Positions 3,721-14,832 of a stretch of 32,556 bases of DNA are shown piece by piece. The notes under the pieces are model-generated. The model did no database searches and had not been told where the DNA came from. It saw only the letters and a list, made by a program, of their open reading frames with translations. How positions within the stretch are numbered: the stretch's first letter is position 1; each line of letters starts with the position of its first letter. Source of the stretch: an uncultured Phycisphaera sp. (lineage in GTDB: Bacteria > Planctomycetota > Phycisphaerae > Phycisphaerales > SM1A02); NCBI GenBank assembly GCA_937919685.1, contig CALFOM010000239.1, positions 1 to 32,556 of the forward strand. Direction: 5' to 3'. The position numbers were made by a program, and so were the translations under genes.

Positions 3721-5229
<1,509 letters not shown>

Positions 5230-5359: not shown

Positions 5360-5382
5360 ATCCATTAAGCGGATTAATGGAT
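5360..5382. promoter_or_regulatory. perfect 9-bp inverted repeat, candidate SahR-type operator
   Basis: ATCCATTAA (5360-5368) and TTAATGGAT (5374-5382) are exact reverse complements separated by five bases. On the minus strand the site begins about 8 bases past the candidate -10 box, so it covers the predicted ahcY start point. A bound repressor there would block transcription. ArsR-family dimers bind short palindromes of this kind, and an ArsR-HTH/methyltransferase fusion is encoded 1 kb away. The repeat was not seen elsewhere in the window, including upstream of the regulator. The link to the regulator is inference. Confidence 0.6.
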
Positions 5383-5389
5383 CAATGGT

Positions 5390-5419
5390 AGAATAGCCTT
5401 CTATAGATCTCTCGGTCAA
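5390..5419 (-). promoter_or_regulatory. candidate sigma70-type promoter of ahcY
   Basis: Reading the minus strand, TTGACC (5419-5414) and TATTCT (5395-5390) are spaced by 18 bases, close to the TTGACA/TATAAT consensus. The start point would fall near 5383, directly at the edge of the inverted repeat at 5360-5382. No better pair was seen in the ahcY upstream region. Confidence 0.5.
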
Positions 5420-5573
5420 TATCCAAACTCACTTTAGATCCGATCGAGCAGATCCACACCTTGGTGTCCCGAATCGACTATTCCACCGTTTCTCCACCTT
5501 CTGCCGCCCTAGGAAGGGGTTGCGGGTTAGGCTGCGCGATCGAAATCACTCACCACCTGCCAGGAGTTCAGTC

Positions 5574-6302
5574 ATGCGTGGAATCAAAATCATCTCCAGT
5601 CTCATCGGAGCGGCGGGTTTCATCGCCGTCGCTGCCGGCTTCACCGTCCCAACCGGCAACGGCTCGGAAGCTCCGAAGCAACAGGGCGCCCCCTACCTGC
5701 TCGACGTCTGCCCGATCAGTGGCCGACCCCTTCCCGAGGACGGCGGCGTCGTCGTCATTCTCGAGGGCGCGAGCGACTCCGCTCAGGCCGGTCGCGAAGT
5801 TCGAGTCTGCTGCGACGGCTGCAAAGGAAAAATTGAGAAGGATCCCGCGAAGTTTATCGGCAAGATCGATGAGTTGATCATCGCCGACCAGCTGGCGCGA
5901 TACCCGAAGTCGATGGGATGTCCGGTGATGGACTCCAAGGCGCTTCCCGATCCCACCGGTCCCGAGGCCAAGGAATGCACGCTCATCGTCTACAAGAACC
6001 GGCTCGTCCGGTTCTGTTGTGCCAAGTGCACCAAGGCTTTCTACAAGGATCCCGAGAAGTACATCGCCAAACTTGATGCGGCCGCAATCGCCGAACAGAA
6101 GACCACCTACCCGCTGACGACCTGCCTCTTCACCGGTGGAGGACTCAAGGAGTCGAGCCCTTGGTTCATCGTCGGCGACCGTGCAGTCAATGTCTGCTGT
6201 GGCGGCTGCAAGCCGAAGGCCATGAAGGACCCAAGAGGCGCGATCGCCAAACTTGATGCGGCCACCGCCAAGACTGCAACGCCGACCAAGACGTCCGGCT
6301 GA
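5574..6302 (+). CDS. exported protein with three tandem TRASH/YHS-like metal-binding repeats
   Basis: This 242-residue protein starts with a Sec-type signal or membrane anchor (about residues 1-25). Three repeats follow. Each has one Cys in C-P/L-x-x-(G/D) (Cys46, Cys116, Cys184), then 23-32 residues later a CCxxC cluster (79/80/83, 148/149/152, 208/209/212), then a basic KDPxxxIxK(L/I)D tail. Spaced Cys clusters of this kind resemble TRASH/YHS domains, which bind copper or other soft metals in sensing and trafficking proteins. The fold assignment is tentative, but the three-fold repeat is clear. Repeats two and three share a 21-base identical stretch (6063-6083 and 6243-6263). ATG 5574 was chosen over an upstream in-frame ATG at 5520 because AGGAG lies seven bases ahead of it and the signal peptide begins there. 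It is divergent from ahcY and may share its control region. Confidence 0.75.
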   Translation: MRGIKIISSLIGAAGFIAVAAGFTVPTGNGSEAPKQQGAPYLLDVCPISGRPLPEDGGVVVILEGASDSAQAGREVRVCCDGCKGKIEKDPAKFIGKIDELIIADQLARYPKSMGCPVMDSKALPDPTGPEAKECTLIVYKNRLVRFCCAKCTKAFYKDPEKYIAKLDAAAIAEQKTTYPLTTCLFTGGGLKESSPWFIVGDRAVNVCCGGCKPKAMKDPRGAIAKLDAATAKTATPTKTSG

Positions 6303-6314
6303 TCGACGCGGAAC

Positions 6315-6371
6315 CGTGAGAATCACATCCAGAGCGGCGCCGACCTTCGGCGTCGCTCTGTCGTTCTCACG
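6315..6371. terminator. bidirectional terminator between convergent genes
   Basis: An inner 13-bp stem (6331-6343 with 6347-6359, one G-U on the plus-strand RNA, three-base loop) is enclosed by an outer perfect 8-bp pair (CGTGAGAA 6315-6322 with TTCTCACG 6364-6371). It sits between the stop of the metal-binding protein (6302) and the stop of the SahR-like gene (6394), which point at each other. There is no long U tract on either side. Its position and symmetry suggest it serves both genes. Confidence 0.65.
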
Positions 6372-6393
6372 TACCGATACCCGAAGAGATCGA

Positions 6394-7356
6394 TTAGCGA
6401 CCTTTGAAAAACGCCGCGGCGAAGAGCCCCGGGCCTTTCCCAGTCGCTACCGGGCGAAGCCGGCGCCAGGTGATTCGATCGAAGCCCGCGTGCTTGCCCA
6501 TGGATCGCATCTCGGCTTCTTCGAACCCCAGATGCTCATGTCCCATGGTGTGCCGATAGGTCTCGCGATCGTGCGCCACCATGTCGACGACGAGAATGAC
6601 GCCTCCCGGCCGCAGTACTCTCGCCGCCTCTGAGAGGGCTCTTTCCGGTTCACGAAGGTGATGGAGTACGAGCATCATTGCCGCCGCATCGATGGACCTT
6701 GCTTCCAGAGGCAAATCCGTGACATCGCCCTGAAGGTAACGGATATTGCTGAATTCCTTCAACCTCTTCCGCGATGCATCAAGCATCGCCTCTTCTCGGT
6801 CGACCGCGACGACCTCCGCCACCACAGGTGCCAAGCGCTGGGCGGCATCGCCGGTTCCACAACCGAGATCGGCCACCACCCAGGACGGATCGAGGAATGC
6901 GAGCATCGCCTCGGCGCCAAAACCAGCGCCGAAGAGTTCATGTCGAAGTTCGTTCCACTCCCCACCGATTCGTCCGAAGAATGCTCGGGAATCGGTTCGA
7001 CGTGATGCGAGGACTTCCTTGAGACGGCTCGCGTCATCCGCGAAGACGGGGCTTGCGGCGAGCCGGTCTCGGGTGGTCTCCCAAAGGCGGCGGAAGTCGG
7101 GGTCGAGTGAATCCTCGTCCAACCGATAGAGACTCGCCGTACCCTCCGAACGCTTGATAATCCAACCGTGGTCGTGCAACGCCTTGAGGTGCCGACTGAC
7201 TGTCGATTGTGGAAGTTGCGCCGCGGTCGCGAGTTCTCCGACCCCGAGCTCCGTTCGTTCCACCAACCGGAGCAGTCTGACCCTTGCCAGCTCCCCCAGT
7301 TGGGTGAGATTGGCGAGCCATTCTTCGGGGCGGCTGGTGAACTTTTTCTCAGTCAC
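6394..7356 (-). CDS. ArsR-family HTH fused to a methyltransferase-fold domain (SahR-like regulator)
   Basis: This 320-residue protein joins a winged helix-turn-helix (about residues 18-80, recognition helix QSTVSRHLKAL) to a class I methyltransferase fold (about 140-318). The latter has motif I VADLGCGTGDA (about 161-171), the acidic end of strand 2 (VVAVDRE), DVTDLPLEARSID and the post-motif RVLRPGGVILVVD. SahR of Proteobacteria has this architecture: it represses ahcY and methionine-cycle genes and leaves DNA when its methyltransferase-like domain binds SAH. The location 1.2 kb from ahcY, next to a palindrome at the ahcY start, supports the same role here. The start is GTG, with GAGGA ten bases upstream lying in the end of the preceding TPR gene; the 13-base gap implies cotranscription. 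An ArsR-type regulator with true methyltransferase activity remains possible. Confidence 0.8.
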   Translation of the reverse strand: MTEKKFTSRPEEWLANLTQLGELARVRLLRLVERTELGVGELATAAQLPQSTVSRHLKALHDHGWIIKRSEGTASLYRLDEDSLDPDFRRLWETTRDRLAASPVFADDASRLKEVLASRRTDSRAFFGRIGGEWNELRHELFGAGFGAEAMLAFLDPSWVVADLGCGTGDAAQRLAPVVAEVVAVDREEAMLDASRKRLKEFSNIRYLQGDVTDLPLEARSIDAAAMMLVLHHLREPERALSEAARVLRPGGVILVVDMVAHDRETYRHTMGHEHLGFEEAEMRSMGKHAGFDRITWRRLRPVATGKGPGLFAAAFFKGR

Positions 7357-9248: not shown

Positions 9249-11315
9249 TCAGATCGTGGCCTCGGTGACTCTCAATACTTCTTCCACCGTGGTCTGTCCG
9301 CTCGCGATCTTTGCGAAACCGTCCTCGCGGAGCGACACCATGCCACGCTCGCAACAGATTCGGCGGAATTCGGTGACATTCGGACTCGACGCGATGAGAT
9401 CCCGAAGGTGGTCGTCGAAGATGAGAAGCTCGTAGAGCCCGATTCGGCCCGAATAGCCAGTATTCCGACAGTCTTCGCATCCTCGCCCTTGGGGAAGCGT
9501 GGCTCGATCAAGGCCGTGAACCGCGAGGAATTCTCGCATCTCTTCCGGCACCTCAATCTCTCCCACACAGGAGGGACAGATCCGCCGCACGAGACGCTGG
9601 GCCAGAACCCCATTCAACGCGGCACCGACCAGAAAGGGCTCCACGCCGATGTTGATCAGCCGGGTGACCGAACTCGGGGCATCGTTCGTATGGAGGGTCG
9701 AGAGGACCAGGTGACCGGTCAACGCGGCCTGCACCGCGATGGAGGCGGTCTCGTGATCCCTGATCTCGCCCACCATGACCACGTCGGGATCCTGACGGAG
9801 CAGCGCCTTCAAGGCGCGAGCGAACGTCATGTCGATCAACGAATGGGTCTGGATCTGCGTCACGCCCGGCAGGTTGTATTCCACGGGGTCTTCAACGGTC
9901 GAGATGTTCAACCGCTTCATGTCCATCTGCCGCAGGGACGAATAGAGCGTCGTGGTCTTGCCCGAACCGGTGGGGCCGGTGACCAGAATGATGCCGTGCG
10001 GCCGATCGATCTGCTTCTTCCAAAGCATGAGCGTGTCATCACGGAATCCGAGTTCGTCGAGCGAGACCTGAATGGCCTGGTCGTCGAGAATCCGCATCAC
10101 CGTCTTTTCGCCATTCACGGTGGGCACCGTGGAAAGGCGCAGATCCAGACGACGATCCATGACCGTCGCTCGAATTCGACCGTCCTGCGGAAGCCGACGT
10201 TCCGCGATGTCGAGATTCGCCATGATTTTCAAGCGGCTAGTCAGCGCCGCGTGCATCTTCTTGGGCGGGTTCATCGACTCGTAGAGAATGCCGTCGATAC
10301 GCAAACGGACCTTGAGCGTCTTCTCTCCGGGCTCGATGTGGATGTCGGAAGCACCTTCCTGAAGCGCCGACTGGATGATGTGGTTTACGTAGCGGACGAC
10401 GGGTGAGCTTTCGGCTTCCGCCTCAAGATCGGTGTCGGTGATCTCTGCTTTCTCGAATCCGACATCATCTTCTTCGACATCAGCGAGAATAGACTCGATG
10501 TCCGCCGATGGCTGATTATCTTCGCCATTCAAGCCCCGGATTGCCGCTTCGACCTCACCGCTGCAGACCAGAACATGCTTGACCACCGAGACGCCGAGCC
10601 GTCGCTTCAGATCGTCGAGTAGAAAGACATCGTCGGGACTCGGTGTGCCGATGATCGTGCGCTTTCCCTCAGACTTCAGCGGAACAACACAGTGTTTGAG
10701 ACAGTATTCGATTCCGAGACGCTGCAGTTGTCCGGAATCAATCGCATCGCTCTCGACTTGAACGAATGGAATCCGAGCAAGCTCCGCCACACCTGACTGC
10801 ACCACCGATTCCTCGACGCCCATCTCCAGAAGCACCGCAGCGATCTTTCGATCGGGCGACTGCAGCTGAAGTCGACGCGCGGTCTCGACCGTTCCCGAAT
10901 CGATGACCTCCCGTTTTCTGAGCAGGTCGACGAGATCACCAGAGACCGATGCTGGCCCGTCTTCCGGAACGAAAAGGTCACGAAGTGCGTCATCGGGCCG
11001 AGTCGGTCGAAGTCGATGTCGATCGAGTGCAATGACCGGATCGATCTCCTCATCCAACCCTCTTCCGGTCTGGAAGTCCGGGGGGCGGGAGTCGAATTTC
11101 GCTGGTGCCGTGGTCGACGACTCAAGGCGAACCGTCTGGTCGACCCTCACGATGGGAGTCGGGGCGTGGGTATCGACGCTGACAGCGTCGTCGAGCACAG
11201 CGCTCGACGGATTGAGGTCGACGTTCGGACCTCCGGAGATCGATGGTTCCTTCGGCGCCATCGCGGAAGGTTCTCCGAGCTCTCGGAGGAGTCTTTCAAT
11301 ATCGAATCGGCCCAC
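9249..11315 (-). CDS. pilB: type IV pilus assembly / type II secretion ATPase (PilB/GspE family)
   Basis: This 688-residue hexameric motor ATPase powers pilus or pseudopilus extension from the cytoplasmic face. A low-complexity N-terminal extension (about 1-115) precedes a GspE-N-like domain (about 125-262) and the ATPase core. The core has Walker A GPTGSGKT (about 447-454), Asp box EDPVEY (about 475), Walker B DVVMVGEIRD (about 511-520) and His box HLVLSTLHTND (about 535-545). A four-Cys zinc motif (CPSC about 580-583, CEDC about 613-616) is characteristic of GspE/PilB extension motors and is absent from PilT. The N domain lacks the R-LG repeats of c-di-GMP-binding MshEN domains (here KIAAVLLEMG). 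The start is GTG with GGAG five bases upstream. It is the last gene of the pilMNO operon, 35 bases after the pilP-like gene. Confidence 0.92.
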   Translation of the reverse strand: MGRFDIERLLRELGEPSAMAPKEPSISGGPNVDLNPSSAVLDDAVSVDTHAPTPIVRVDQTVRLESSTTAPAKFDSRPPDFQTGRGLDEEIDPVIALDRHRLRPTRPDDALRDLFVPEDGPASVSGDLVDLLRKREVIDSGTVETARRLQLQSPDRKIAAVLLEMGVEESVVQSGVAELARIPFVQVESDAIDSGQLQRLGIEYCLKHCVVPLKSEGKRTIIGTPSPDDVFLLDDLKRRLGVSVVKHVLVCSGEVEAAIRGLNGEDNQPSADIESILADVEEDDVGFEKAEITDTDLEAEAESSPVVRYVNHIIQSALQEGASDIHIEPGEKTLKVRLRIDGILYESMNPPKKMHAALTSRLKIMANLDIAERRLPQDGRIRATVMDRRLDLRLSTVPTVNGEKTVMRILDDQAIQVSLDELGFRDDTLMLWKKQIDRPHGIILVTGPTGSGKTTTLYSSLRQMDMKRLNISTVEDPVEYNLPGVTQIQTHSLIDMTFARALKALLRQDPDVVMVGEIRDHETASIAVQAALTGHLVLSTLHTNDAPSSVTRLINIGVEPFLVGAALNGVLAQRLVRRICPSCVGEIEVPEEMREFLAVHGLDRATLPQGRGCEDCRNTGYSGRIGLYELLIFDDHLRDLIASSPNVTEFRRICCERGMVSLREDGFAKIASGQTTVEEVLRVTEATI

Positions 11316-11350
11316 GTTCGCTCCAATGCGCTTCGTCCCGGAAACCCGAC

Positions 11351-12094
11351 TCAGAACTTCCTTTTGACGCCCACTTCGATCCGTCGCGAATGCCGAGGCT
11401 CCGCGAGTTTCGAAACAAAGACGACACCGTCACGACCGATACGCTCGACCGCAAAGTTGTATTCCTCTCCTTCGTGGGGAACGTCGAACACGTCTCCAAC
11501 CATAATCCGGTGCCCGTTCAGCACCGCTTGTGCACGAGGCGAATCAGGGGCCAGGATCGCGGTCACCAACATGAGTTCCCCGATCCTGTCGATCGTCTCA
11601 TTGAAACGGTTCTTGAGCTGATCGATCGTGTTGACTGGACGCTCCTCGATCGGCGCCAACTCCACGACGGCCGCGTCGATCTCACCCCAATATCGAAAAG
11701 GCCGCTCCTTCTTCAGGCCCTCTGTCGTGACCTGCAAGTCGTTGAGACGGTCCTTGTCGAGTCGCTCCAACACTCTGAGATCATCGAGACCCAGCACTGC
11801 TCCCTGCTTCTCCGCATCGAGAATCCACTTTCCGACTTCGGCTCTTTCGTCGAGGTCCCCGTTGGAAGCCACGCCTCGACCAAGAAAACGCATTGACCAG
11901 AGCCCCGCCGTGGATGCGGCGAGCACTCCAATGAACAAAAGCGTGCTCCCATCGATCCGTCGACGCGACCCCCCCTTGACCGCTTCGGCGAATCCGTCAT
12001 CGACCGAAAAGTCGATGGTGCCACCGCGGATCATGGGATCGTCGATCGAGGAGTCGATGCTGTCTACTTGGTCGTTTCGGTTCTGTTCACTCAT
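11351..12094 (-). CDS. PilP/GspC-like inner-membrane pilus assembly protein (tentative)
   Basis: This 247-residue protein has a soluble acidic N-terminus, one membrane helix (about residues 50-68), a charged helical middle and a C-terminal beta-rich segment around AQAVLNGHRIMVGDVFDVPHEG. That segment resembles the small beta domain of PilP/GspC, which links the inner-membrane platform to the secretin. Homology is weak by eye, so the call rests mainly on topology and on its place directly after pilO. Its ATG overlaps the pilO stop by four bases (ATGA), and pilB follows after 35 bases. An alternative is a lineage-specific pilus subunit in the PilP position. Confidence 0.55.
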   Translation of the reverse strand: MSEQNRNDQVDSIDSSIDDPMIRGGTIDFSVDDGFAEAVKGGSRRRIDGSTLLFIGVLAASTAGLWSMRFLGRGVASNGDLDERAEVGKWILDAEKQGAVLGLDDLRVLERLDKDRLNDLQVTTEGLKKERPFRYWGEIDAAVVELAPIEERPVNTIDQLKNRFNETIDRIGELMLVTAILAPDSPRAQAVLNGHRIMVGDVFDVPHEGEEYNFAVERIGRDGVVFVSKLAEPRHSRRIEVGVKRKF

Positions 12095-12669
12095 GCGTCA
12101 CCTTCCTCTTCACCTTCGCAGTAGATGACGAGCGTCATCGATGCGTCGATCAGACCATGTACGATTTCTTCTTCGACCTTCCGCCCACGGGACTCGACCA
12201 TGTTTCGCTCGAGTTCGAGATTCTGGACACGGATGATCCTCGGAAGACGCTCGATGTCGATCAGGAATCGGTACAGGCCCTTGAAATCTCCTTCGATCTC
12301 CATGGAGAGCGGGATTTCTGCGTAACCCTGATCCTCGGTCTGCCTGAGCGCACGAATTGAAGTGATGCTCAGAGCATTCCGCTCACCGATCATGTGAATC
12401 TCCGCGAGCATGTCGTCGACTTCATCCGCGTCCGGAATGTTCTGCCGGAAATCCGCCAGGCGAACCTCGGCCGCGGAAATCGCTTCACGAACATCCCCGA
12501 CCTCATTGGTCAACTGATCGAGGCGAAGTAGGGTTCTCTCCATATTCGCGATCTCTTGTCGGGACTGTTCGATGTCCTGATTCCGAGGTTCGAAGACGAA
12601 GAACCACGCCGCAACGGGAATCGCGGCCAGTACCAGAAGAAACGCGACTTCACGAATTCCAAGTTTCAT
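12091..12669 (-). CDS. pilO: type IV pilus assembly protein PilO
   Basis: This 192-residue protein fits the family size of about 200. It has one N-terminal membrane helix (VAFLLVLAAIPVAAWFFVF, about residues 8-26), a long coiled coil (about 30-85), then a ferredoxin-like periplasmic domain containing ISITSIR- and IPLSMEIEGDFKGLYRFLIDIERLPRI-type segments; the GxYxxLYxFL-like pattern is characteristic of PilO. PilO pairs with PilN in the inner membrane and aligns the pilus machine. Start and stop each overlap the neighbours by four bases, so translation is coupled to pilN and the pilP-like gene. Confidence 0.88.
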   Translation of the reverse strand: MKLGIREVAFLLVLAAIPVAAWFFVFEPRNQDIEQSRQEIANMERTLLRLDQLTNEVGDVREAISAAEVRLADFRQNIPDADEVDDMLAEIHMIGERNALSITSIRALRQTEDQGYAEIPLSMEIEGDFKGLYRFLIDIERLPRIIRVQNLELERNMVESRGRKVEEEIVHGLIDASMTLVIYCEGEEEGDA

Positions 12670-13409
12670 ACTTCTTCCTCCATGTCGACCGATGCCATGT
12701 CGATCGGGTCTTCGTTCTCGCGAATATCCGCTTCAGGATCGATCTCGAAGAGGACGCGAAACTCCCGCATGGGGCGATCGTCGACCTCTTTCTCCTGCGT
12801 TTGATCGAGACGGACTCGACGGAAGATCGGAACCTTGACCAGGGCATCGATGAATCGGGAGACCTCGTCAAGGGACGGGGCAAGCCCATCCAACTGAACC
12901 TCGGACTTCCAACGTCGAGGCTCGGGACGAACGGTTTCAGCCTCTTCGAGTGAGGCGGCAGCTCCACCGCGGTTTCGCTTGCTCCCAAGCGTGGCGACCG
13001 CCTGGGGTCGGACCTTTGCTGCCTTGATTTCCGTGGTCTGGAGACTAAACCTGGTCAGACTCAGCTCAGTGGGCATCTGCAGTACGATCTCGGCGAGCAG
13101 GTTCGATCGGGGAACCGTATCGACGAGACCGACGGCAATGTGCGCCTTGTCGACCATCTGTTCGACTCGGAGCTCGTAGGCGTCCATCTCGGCAATCTGG
13201 TCGTTGGCCGCGATGAATCGCTGATTGACCACCGCCCGATCGGCGCGAACGCCGGACCAGTTTTTCTGCGTCACCATGAACGCCGTCGTGACGCCGAACA
13301 TCACAAGAATGAAGAGCGTGATGGCCATCACGTTCATCCGCCGTTCGGCTTTCTTCTCGACGTAATCGTCAGGGAGAAATCCGGAATTGAAATCATTCGA
13401 GTCGCGCAT
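12666..13409 (-). CDS. pilN: type IV pilus assembly protein PilN
   Basis: The 247-residue protein starts with a short cytoplasmic segment FLPDDYVEKKAERR, in the position of the PilN tail that docks into PilM (family consensus INLLP). A single membrane helix follows (about residues 26-48), then a coiled coil and a PilN-type periplasmic domain (LLAEIVLQMPTELSLTRF; SLDEVSRFIDALVKVPIF). A Gly/Ala/Glu-rich insertion (about 150-175) splits the periplasmic part. PilN partners PilO and links it to cytoplasmic PilM. The frame is open upstream to 13556, but ATG 13409 has GGAG five bases ahead and the extension overlaps pilM out of frame. It lies 19 bases after pilM and overlaps pilO by four bases. Confidence 0.85.
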   Translation of the reverse strand: MRDSNDFNSGFLPDDYVEKKAERRMNVMAITLFILVMFGVTTAFMVTQKNWSGVRADRAVVNQRFIAANDQIAEMDAYELRVEQMVDKAHIAVGLVDTVPRSNLLAEIVLQMPTELSLTRFSLQTTEIKAAKVRPQAVATLGSKRNRGGAAASLEEAETVRPEPRRWKSEVQLDGLAPSLDEVSRFIDALVKVPIFRRVRLDQTQEKEVDDRPMREFRVLFEIDPEADIRENEDPIDMASVDMEEEV

Positions 13410-13428
13410 TTCGTCTCCAGAACTCAGT

Positions 13429-14664
13429 TCAGGCTTTCGGGCCCATGGCGCACAAGCCGCAGGCGACCACCCACTCGGGATGTTCCCTGGAAGGATCGAG
13501 CGGTCCGATGCAGTCCGCGTTTCCGGCGAACAGACGCCGGATCGGATCCCCCACACTCGTCTTGATGCCCATGCGTCGGGCGAGATGCCCTGCGAATCGG
13601 CGGCTGTGAGACTCGCCGCCGAGCATCACGATCCGATCGATGGGACTTCCCAGAGATGCCTGGGCGTATCGAGCACACATTGAAAGTTCATCGGCGACCG
13701 TCTCGTGAACCTCGATGAAATCGGGTTGCGGACAGGCGGTGGAGACCGCGGCGAGCGAGGTGGACTCCTCAGCGATTCGACGGTCTTCGGCCAAGATCAT
13801 GCCGGACTCCGTTCTCGAGCGAGGGTTCTCCGACTCGGCACCAGCCTTGGACATACCTACCCGGAGCATCACAGATCCCAATTGACTGTGGTCAGTCGCT
13901 TCGGTTGATTGCATCGGCTTCGGCGAAGCCTGCGCCTCTTCTTCCTGAATCCGGCGAATTCTCGCCGCGGCGTTCGTACAACCCCAGGCCGCTGCCGAAA
14001 TCTCGTCGAACTGGCGTCCGCCGATCTGAATGATCCGGGCGAAGACCAGATCCGTGCCGCGAGCGACCGCGACCTTCACGGCCCCCCATCCGGCATCGAC
14101 GTACATCGTGCTGATCGATCGATCCTCGGAACGACGATGCAGATGATTAAAAGAGTGAAGCATCGGAATCTGATCGGGGTGCACGCCGACCAGATCGATT
14201 CGACATCGCTTGAAGAGATCGACATGACGCATCACGTCGTCGCGGGCGATGGCAAGAACCACCCGATCACGGTCGCTTCCTGGGGTCGGGAACGACCTTG
14301 CGACCACAGCCTTGGGAAGACAGTTCATTCGGCCGGCAACCTCGGCACTGACCTGGTCGTCGACAGACAAGGGACTCGACTCGTCGATACGCGTCTGCTG
14401 CACGATGAAGTGGGAACTTGCGGGTGAACATATCGCACGCTTGCCCTCGAAACCACCCTTCCGCAACGCTGCGGGGAGTTCTTCGGCAAGGAATGCGAAT
14501 CGTCGGTCGACGTTTCCTCTTGCTTCGTCGGGGATCTCAATCTTCGCAGCGGCGACGATGCTCGGCGTCTCTTCGTCGGTAAGCTGAAGCAGCTTCACCG
14601 ACGACGCGCCGAAGTCCGCCACTACGGGCGAGACCGTTTTTGAAAACATCCTCGGAATGCGCAT
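13429..14664 (-). CDS. pilM: type IV pilus assembly protein PilM (actin-like)
   Basis: PilM is a cytoplasmic actin-fold ATP-binding protein that recruits the PilN tail. The 411 residues show the phosphate-1 strand VVADFGASSVKLLQL, the phosphate-2 strand TMYVDAGWGAVKVAVARG, the adenosine segment DRIVMLGGESHSRRFAGHLA and a PilM-type SVDDQVSAEV. Between the conserved GGRQFDEISAA and VADELSMCARYA lies a polar low-complexity insertion of about 75 residues, which makes the protein longer than typical PilM (about 350). An ATG five codons upstream (14679) is in frame, but ATG 14664 has GGAGAAG nine bases ahead and was preferred. It is the first gene of the pilMNO-pilP-like-pilB operon. No convincing promoter was found in the 170 bases upstream. 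Confidence 0.87.
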   Translation of the reverse strand: MRIPRMFSKTVSPVVADFGASSVKLLQLTDEETPSIVAAAKIEIPDEARGNVDRRFAFLAEELPAALRKGGFEGKRAICSPASSHFIVQQTRIDESSPLSVDDQVSAEVAGRMNCLPKAVVARSFPTPGSDRDRVVLAIARDDVMRHVDLFKRCRIDLVGVHPDQIPMLHSFNHLHRRSEDRSISTMYVDAGWGAVKVAVARGTDLVFARIIQIGGRQFDEISAAAWGCTNAAARIRRIQEEEAQASPKPMQSTEATDHSQLGSVMLRVGMSKAGAESENPRSRTESGMILAEDRRIAEESTSLAAVSTACPQPDFIEVHETVADELSMCARYAQASLGSPIDRIVMLGGESHSRRFAGHLARRMGIKTSVGDPIRRLFAGNADCIGPLDPSREHPEWVVACGLCAMGPKA

Positions 14665-14832
14665 GCGAGTCTTCTCCATGCCGGATCGATGGAACGAATC
14701 CGTACATGTAGAGGCATCGACCGGACCGAGACCGCTGTTGAGTCCATGCCGGGGGGTTGACGCAAGACATCCAGCGGGATGATCTGAATGATTCGATGTG
14801 TGCCGGCAGGTCCGGGAATCAACCGCCTCTGG

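What the first reader, a model, noticed from the sequence alone, without database searches (positions are those of the whole stretch)
5360..7356. SahR-like SAH-sensing regulation of ahcY in a planctomycete
The sequence shows three linked items: ahcY; a perfect 9-bp inverted repeat (ATCCATTAA-N5-TTAATGGAT) at the predicted ahcY start point just downstream of TTGACC-N18-TATTCT; and an ArsR-HTH fused to a methyltransferase fold 1 kb away. SahR, described in Proteobacteria, has this architecture, represses ahcY and methionine-cycle genes and responds to SAH. Use of this circuit in Planctomycetota is, as far as I know, not described. The operator assignment and SAH response are inference.
Basis: partly seen in the sequence, partly recalled or inferred. 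Interest (0 to 1): 0.78.

Follow-up and report, generated by a model that had tools for sequence, protein, structure and literature searches.

The report
SahR-like methyl-cycle regulon in planctomycetes
A planctomycete bacterium appears to control the genes of its methyl-donor (SAM) cycle with a repressor built from a DNA-binding part and a methyltransferase-like sensor part, a kind of switch so far described in Proteobacteria, and its predicted DNA target sites can be followed through related genomes and into other phyla.

Summary
The 9-bp dyad at 5360-5382 is unique in the window and directly follows a TTGACC-N18-TATTCT promoter of ahcY; an ArsR-type helix fused to a SAM-methyltransferase fold is encoded 1 kb away. 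A blind own-genome scan (<=3 mismatches) found two places: ahcY and, unpredicted, metK. Across the eight genus members 12 of 13 places are at ahcY or metK, and the 13th, at a contig end, shares metK's neighbour gene. Outside the genus the site becomes TTCATCCGGATGAACGGATGAA: 104 places in 54 of 61 genomes (reversed control 0), 97 just upstream of metH, ahcY, metK, metE or the regulator. The window's genome carries this form at metH. Of 80 further loci (Planctomycetota, Gemmatimonadota, Acidobacteriota, Myxococcota and others), 56 have the regulator directly followed by ahcY, and 48 of these 56 have ATC-N10-GAT near the regulator start, a spacing quoted for SahR/SamR. No riboswitch matched. This is a SahR-like regulon of a variant lineage: no site at the regulator itself or metF in the window's genome, and a shortened operator at ahcY and metK. 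SAH sensing is inferred, not shown. Side lead: operator-like sites precede CBASS cyclase genes in a few relatives.

The parts
3721..5229 (-). ahcY, S-adenosylhomocysteine hydrolase (predicted target)
   Evidence: TIGR00936 ahcY equivalog, 608 bits over a cut-off of 497.6; PF05221 and PF00670
5360..5382 (.). 23-bp operator dyad ATCCATTAA-N5-TTAATGGAT, at the predicted start point of ahcY
   Evidence: unique in window, 0 in 100 shuffles; own genome: only ahcY and metK; conserved at ahcY and metK in the genus
5390..5395 (-). -10 element TATTCT of the predicted ahcY promoter
   Evidence: sequence; aligned in five genus members
5414..5419 (-). -35 element TTGACC of the predicted ahcY promoter (spacer 18)
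   Evidence: sequence; invariant in five genus members
5574..6302 (+). divergent gene between operator and regulator; weak YHS-like match; not known to be a target
   Evidence: PF04945 at 21.7 bits, under its cut-off of 30.3; homologues beside the site in some relatives (cluster 2)
6394..7356 (-). SahR-like regulator: ArsR winged helix (residues about 10-80) plus SAM-methyltransferase-fold sensor (about 148-317)
   Evidence: AlphaFold2 model, mean pLDDT 86.4, pTM 0.58; match at E<=1e-60 in 56 of 61 genomes, own included; best match of the S. meliloti homologue in this genome

Best explanation
The 320-aa protein is a SahR-like repressor. Its ArsR winged helix binds operators built on ATCC/GGAT half-sites in the promoters of ahcY (window 5360-5382), metK and metH and blocks transcription. 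When S-adenosylhomocysteine rises, SAH enters the C-terminal methyltransferase-type pocket, the protein leaves the DNA, and SAH removal, methionine synthesis and SAM synthesis are switched on together. Shown here by comparison: the operator, its conservation, its target genes, the co-occurrence with the regulator and the domain architecture. Inferred: physical binding by this protein, repression (from the operator's place just downstream of the -10) and SAH as the signal (from described SahR and the invariant residues of the SAM/SAH-binding motif).
For: Own genome: the blind <=3-mismatch scan gives ahcY and metK only; a third site lies upstream of metH; metK, metH and metF named by NCBIfam (the metH frame read is a fragment). 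Genus: 13 places in 8 genomes; 5 ahcY, 7 metK, and one at a contig end that shares the metK neighbour gene. 61 genomes: 22-mer in 54, reversed control 0; 104 distinct places = metH 41, ahcY 25, metK 16, regulator (heading regulator-ahcY) 13, metE 2, none 7; 13 of the 97 by coordinates alone; median distance 54 bp. Co-occurrence: 56 of 61 have the regulator at E<=1e-60, and 52 of those 56 have a 22-mer or genus-type site; of the 5 without it, 4 are at most 88% complete and keep sites, while G025 (98% complete, ahcY present) lacks the regulator and the 22-mer. Phylum sample of 246: 12 of 12 with the regulator at E<=1e-60 carry a site (all 12 already among the 61), against 8 of 184 with no match at 1e-30. 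Other phyla: 56 of 80 loci have the regulator directly followed by ahcY; 48 of these 56 have ATC-N10-GAT near the regulator start, other spacings 1-9 of 56, random windows 11% for N10. D163, G165, G167, G169 and D186 are invariant in 24 regulators; that they form the SAM/SAH-binding motif is recalled. Rfam: no match on the window, metK or metH loci.
Against: No binding or ligand data. The window's ahcY dyad lacks the ATC-N10-GAT spacing found elsewhere (it has N9 and N17), so how one protein reads both forms is unexplained. There is no site upstream of the regulator in its own genome and none at metF, both core members of proteobacterial SahR regulons. Four regulator-bearing relatives (G009, G012, G029, G052) have no site at <=3 mismatches; G012 and G029 have weaker ones at ahcY (scores 12.7 and 17.5), G009 has none there, and the ahcY promoter of G052 was not fetched. 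In the phylum sample only 3 of 50 genomes with weaker homologues (E between 1e-60 and 1e-30) carry the site, and 8 of 184 without a match carry one, against 1 of 246 for the reversed pattern. The genus sites were gathered with a palindromic pattern, which favours complementary arms.
Confidence: 0.85

Rival explanations
1. The regulon is as described but the signal is SAM (or another nucleoside such as MTA), as was suggested for SamR of Xanthomonadales.
For: The sensor fold could bind SAM and SAH alike; the nearest solved folds include SAH- and SAM-bound methyltransferases. Leyn et al. leave the SamR effector open (PMC4239095, passages read).
Against: ahcY, the SAH-removing enzyme, is a main target here, whereas of the SAM-cycle genes only metK was found in SamR regulons (PMC4239095 passage).
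Confidence: 0.15
2. A different protein binds the dyad, and the ArsR-methyltransferase gene is only a neighbour.
For: In the window the regulator is 1 kb away, separated from ahcY by a divergent gene, and has no site of its own. In genomes with only weaker homologues the site is rare (3 of 50).
Against: In other phyla the regulator heads a regulator-ahcY unit with the site near its start. G025 lacks both the regulator and the 22-mer sites. The S. meliloti homologue finds this as the only match covering both the HTH and the methyltransferase part in the genome.
Confidence: 0.06
3. The dyad is a transcript element (riboswitch, hairpin or terminator) rather than a protein operator.
For: An inverted repeat at a start point would also lie in the 5' end of the transcript.
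Against: No Rfam family matches on the window, L002 or L109. The element is short, lies at varied distances (-19 to 165 bp), is seen in both orientations before the regulator (mostly +, but - in L209, L214 and L227), and in the wider form contains direct as well as inverted copies of the half-site.
Confidence: 0.02
4. Chance palindrome.
For: Short inverted repeats occur by chance: the 23-mer has 13 places in nine genomes outside the genus, 11 examined and none near a target gene, and its reversed pattern has 5 places in four genomes.
Against: 0 in 100 shuffles of the window; two own-genome places, both SAM-cycle genes; 12 of 13 genus places at ahcY or metK; changes on both sides at pair 8/16.
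Confidence: 0.01

Closest known systems
SahR of alpha- and deltaproteobacteria (ArsR family, SAH-responsive; Novichkov et al. 2014, not held, recalled and cited in PMC4239095; Leyn et al. 2014, PMC4239095, passages read)
   Same: ArsR HTH plus methyltransferase fold (the latter recalled for SahR); targets ahcY, metH, metK, sometimes metE; ATC-N10-GAT spacing in the wider family and at the own-genome metH site; the S. meliloti homologue finds this protein first.
   Different: About 28-36% identity over 73-79% of the protein to alphaproteobacterial and Leptospira homologues; separate clade from them and from the Desulfobacter rows; different letters (ATCCG...CGGAT); up to four half-sites at 8-bp period; no site at the regulator or at metF in the window's genome.
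SamR of Xanthomonadales (PMC4239095, passages read)
   Same: Distant SahR homologue with a 24-bp palindrome; shares ATC-10 nt-GAT; controls metH and metK.
   Different: SamR regulons lack ahcY; here ahcY is a main target.
SAH riboswitch (Rfam)
   Same: Controls ahcY and other SAM-cycle genes in response to SAH (PMC4239095 passages).
   Different: RNA, not protein; no match here.
Rv2258c and similar winged-helix methyltransferases (PDB 5f8e, 5f8c)
   Same: Best Foldseek matches of the whole model; that Rv2258c has an N-terminal winged helix plus a Rossmann domain is recalled.
   Different: TM-score under 0.5 and 16-18% identity for the Rv2258c rows; deposited as a methyltransferase, not as a repressor.

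Membership tests
SahR | ArsR-type HTH fused to a SAM-methyltransferase-type domain | tested here: met
SahR | Regulon core ahcY, metH, metK | tested here: met
   own genome: ahcY, metK, metH sites (names); 61 genomes
SahR | metF in the core regulon | tested here: not met
   the only own-genome metF (L169): best PWM score -7.8 in its 3.9-kb stretch
SahR | Regulator gene itself in the regulon (autoregulation) | tested here: not met
   not met in the window's genome; of 38 regulator loci scanned (three genomes twice) 34 lack a site and 4 have one, scores 17.2-37.9; 11 further order members carry it by coordinates, as do 48 of 56 regulator-ahcY units elsewhere by spacing
SahR | Palindromic operator with ATC-N10-GAT | tested here: inconclusive
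   met in 48 of 56 regulator-ahcY units and at own metH (L109); not met at the window's ahcY dyad, which has N9 and N17
SahR | Orthology to proteobacterial SahR | tested here: inconclusive
   the S. meliloti homologue's best own-genome match is this protein, E 4.8e-33; the reverse search was made in plasmids only; the tree puts them in different clades
SahR | SAH dissociates the repressor from DNA | not testable with these tools
   needs binding assays; only invariant motif residues were seen
SamR | Regulon without ahcY | tested here: not met
   ahcY is a main target
SAH riboswitch | Rfam covariance-model match in the ahcY leader | tested here: not met
   0 matches on window, L002, L109 at gathering threshold

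The most novel reading that the evidence does not exclude
In some Phycisphaerae the SAM-cycle regulator also controls an anti-phage system: its operator stands upstream of CBASS cyclase genes, so that the SAH level, which phage methyltransferases or SAM-destroying enzymes would disturb, tunes defence. In 61 genomes the cyclase clade PDLC00808 occurs at E<1e-50 in two, and both have an operator-like site about 250-320 bp upstream (PWM 29.0 and 25.8; training sites 26.5-40.6; no score of 25.8 or more in 659 million simulated positions). Three of the seven 22-mer places not near SAM-cycle genes are of this kind. Against: a second clade (PDLC00780, 4 strong loci) has only weak sites in two congeneric genomes (20.8 and 13.8, within chance) and none in the other two; one weak PDLC00808 match lacks it; the sites lie further from the gene than at SAM-cycle targets.
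Probability: 0.25. Interest if true: 0.8.

Novelty: new variant of a known kind. Interest (0 to 1): 0.52.

Why it matters
It carries a metabolite-sensing repressor described in Proteobacteria into Planctomycetota and, by the same signature, Gemmatimonadota, Acidobacteriota and Myxococcota bins, with a predicted operator and target list that one gel-shift experiment can test. The genus-level change of the operator at ahcY and metK, but not at metH, is a natural experiment on how ArsR dimers read spacing. The CBASS lead, if true, would tie methylation state to phage defence.

Tried and rejected
Considered and rejected: chance palindrome; riboswitch; metF as a target in the own genome; the plain 23-mer as a family-wide motif (11 of its 13 places outside the genus were examined and none is near a target gene; G025:C127 and G060:C292 were not fetched). 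Tried without gain: PDB sequence search for a solved SahR (single-domain relatives and methyltransferases); Novichkov 2014 is not held, so its content is recalled or second-hand; the paper search on SahR with Planctomycetes listed 20 of 47 papers, which looked like author-name matches and were not opened. A p-value computation for the PWM was faulty (wrap-around, last lines); redid it with independent letters, but a short Markov simulation showed a higher background, so one search gives the figures to use. The palindrome listing served only to find the wider motif.

Left unexplained: of the seven places without a SAM-cycle gene, G017 lies at a contig end beside the metH neighbour gene (cluster 9), three lie upstream of CBASS cyclases, and two near-identical ones in G030 (L123, L124) and one in G014 (L133) have no explanation.
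Full report
Observation. The dyad at 5360-5382 is exact and is the only match in the window at up to three mismatches; 100 shuffles gave none. On the minus strand it lies right after TTGACC-N18-TATTCT (5419-5390), so the predicted ahcY start point falls at its edge. ahcY is 3721-5229 minus. The regulator, 6394-7356 minus, joins an ArsR HTH to a methyltransferase fold; its AlphaFold2 model has a winged-helix pattern of elements followed by a Rossmann-type domain, mean pLDDT 86.4 and pTM 0.58. Foldseek ranks Rv2258c with SAH first, with modest TM-scores.

Own genome. Searching the whole genome (3.45 Mb, 254 contigs, 97% complete) for the dyad with up to three mismatches gave two places: ahcY, and C118:4856-4878, which is 33 bp upstream of metK (TIGR01034). 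Nothing in the query pointed to metK. In the metK leader the site again follows a TATTCT box. A third site, of the wider form described below, stands 92 bp upstream of metH (L109; the 526-residue fragment read matches TIGR02082 metH). The single metF has none. The regulator has none upstream.

Genus. In the eight genus members, own included, the scan gives 13 places: five at ahcY, seven at metK, and one (G007:C144) at a contig end whose neighbour gene is the one found beside metK elsewhere (cluster 4). ahcY is missing from three of these assemblies. The conserved columns are ATCC.T..A.CGG.T.AA.GGAT. At pair 8/16 both sides change together, A-T in two sites and C-G in eight, with three sites not complementary; pairs 5/19 and 7/17 each break in two sites. 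Because the sites were gathered with a palindromic pattern, this is weaker evidence than their positions. The ahcY promoter alignment of five genus members keeps TTGACC invariant, with the -10 and the operator largely conserved. Outside the genus the same pattern has 13 places in nine genomes; 11 were examined and none is near a target gene.

Wider family. Palindrome listing upstream of ahcY in other relatives showed a related motif, TTCATCCGGATGAACGGATGAA. A blind scan at up to three mismatches found it in 54 of 61 genomes (own plus 60); the reversed pattern was found in none. Merging overlaps gives 104 distinct places. By tblastn on fetched stretches (84) or by coordinates (13), 97 are upstream of metH (41), ahcY (25), metK (16), the regulator (13) or metE (2; NF003556), at a median of 54 bp, range -19 to 165. 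In 83 such sites, which were chosen for likeness to the 22-mer, information is highest in one ATCC and two GGAT half-sites, with a weaker fourth half-site 8 bp further out. Thus the operator is made of ATCC/GGAT half-sites at 8-bp period. In the window's genus the ahcY and metK sites are a one-base-shorter form (outer span 23, against 24 in the related genus of G013), while metH keeps the usual form. This change is not explained.

Co-occurrence. The regulator is found at E<=1e-60 in 56 of 61 genomes; 52 of these 56 carry a 22-mer or genus-type site. The other four are G009, G012, G029 and G052; weaker sites stand at ahcY in G012 and G029, none in G009, and G052's ahcY promoter was not fetched. 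Of the five genomes without the regulator, four are at most 88% complete and retain sites. The only one above 90%, G025 (98%), has ahcY but neither regulator nor 22-mer, and its ahcY stretch scores at most 2.1; its three 23-mer hits include two examined ones that are not near target genes. In a sample of 246 genomes of the phylum, 12 of 12 with the regulator at E<=1e-60 have the site (all 12 belong to the 61 already seen), 3 of 50 with weaker homologues (E between 1e-60 and 1e-30) have it, and 8 of 184 without a match at 1e-30 have it; the reversed control gave 1 of 246. By their coordinates the sites in G190 and G233 lie just upstream of one of the two weaker homologues.

Other phyla. A scan of named genomes returned 80 loci, the cap, from Phycisphaerae, other Planctomycetota, Gemmatimonadota, Acidobacteriota, Myxococcota, single Verrucomicrobia, Pontiellaceae and Sumerlaeia bins, three Desulfobacter-type bins and a few with other or no names. 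In 56 of 80 the regulator is directly followed by ahcY. In 48 of those 56 the stretch from 150 bp before to 40 bp after the regulator start holds ATC-N10-GAT; spacings of 6-9 and 11-14 were found in 1-9 of 56, and random windows of the same loci held ATC-N10-GAT in 11%. ATC-10 nt-GAT is the consensus that Leyn et al. give as common to SamR and gammaproteobacterial SahR sites (PMC4239095, passages read). A Leptospira homologue heads a regulator, ahcY, 4Fe-4S protein, metH row with the perfect palindrome GATATCAAGATATCTTGATATC; the S. meliloti homologue stands before metF. In the three Desulfobacter-type loci no ATC-N10-GAT was seen. Searching the window's genome with the S. meliloti protein returns this regulator first, E 4.8e-33, and the next match covers the methyltransferase part only. 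In a tree of 112 regulators, a well-supported group of 96 (100/99) holds the window's protein and its Planctomycetota-rich clade together with a Gemmatimonadota/Acidobacteriota/Myxococcota clade that also contains some planctomycetes; the alphaproteobacterial, Desulfobacter and Leptospira rows lie outside it, their deeper order being weak (67/64). Names of metagenome bins may be unreliable.

Mechanism. Operator just downstream of the -10 at ahcY and metK suggests repression by blocking the polymerase. Residues of the SAM/SAH-binding motif are invariant in 24 regulators. SAH release of SahR in Desulfovibrio is reported by Novichkov et al. 2014, which is not held here; I rely on citations of it in PMC4239095 and PMC8877191 (passages read) and on recall. 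SAH as the signal in planctomycetes is therefore inference. No riboswitch matched on the window, L002 or L109.

Comparison. It works like SahR and shares architecture, core targets and, in the wider family, operator spacing with it. It differs in lineage, operator letters, multiplicity of half-sites, lack of a metF site and lack of a site at the regulator in the window's genome. On the last point, of 38 regulator loci scanned (three genomes twice) 34 lack a site and 4, from one other family of the order, have one, and 11 further order members have one by coordinates. I therefore call it SahR-like and rate it a new variant of a known kind. Literature searches in the open-access library listed no paper that I recognised as a report of SahR in Planctomycetota; only listings, and passages of PMC4239095 and PMC8877191, were seen, and subscription papers were not searched.

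A side finding. Three of the seven unassigned places lie about 250-400 bp upstream of CBASS-type oligonucleotide cyclase genes. The cyclase clade PDLC00808 occurs in the 61 genomes strongly in two, both with the site (scores 29.0 and 25.8), plus one weak match (G039) without it. Of four strong PDLC00780 loci, two from congeneric genomes have weak sites (20.8 and 13.8) and two have none. In a phylum sample of 392 genomes one further PDLC00808 match (G120) lacks it. Four plasmid homologues (4 of 60 records found) lack it. In three simulations of 220 million positions each, no score of 25.8 or more occurred, but 0-7 of 20.8 or more did, so the weak sites are within chance. This deserves its own study.

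Noticed in passing
L139:1614-1635 (G054), L091:1501-1522 (G036); weaker: L143:1607-1628 (G050), L263:3074-3095 (G042): Operator-like sites about 250-420 bp upstream of CBASS oligonucleotide cyclase genes in regulator-bearing relatives; absent from four plasmid homologues and from three other cyclase loci of relatives.
   Followed up: partly
window 5574-6302 (+): Divergent protein with a weak YHS-like match between the operator and the regulator; homologues lie beside the site in several relatives, so the operator might also influence it.
   Followed up: no
L002:1490-1525 (metK leader of the own genome): ATCC units at 8-bp period (ATCCATTA ATCCATTC ATCG...) extend the metK site, hinting at more than one dimer.
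   Followed up: no
phylum sample, e.g. G210, G195, G237, G290: 50 of 246 sampled genomes carry more distant homologues of the regulator (E between 1e-60 and 1e-30), some of them two; 47 of these 50 lack the 22-mer; their targets are unknown.
   Followed up: no
G025 (L054): A 98% complete, 2.0 Mb relative that keeps ahcY but lacks both regulator and 22-mer operators, possibly a natural loss of the circuit.
   Followed up: partly
L123:1631-1660 and L124:1636-1665 (G030): Two near-identical operator-like sites in one genome, not near SAM-cycle genes.
   Followed up: no
window 9249-14679 (-): Reading frames that look, from their translations alone, like pilus or type II secretion assembly genes (PilB/GspE, PilO, PilN and PilM types); not tested.
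   Followed up: no
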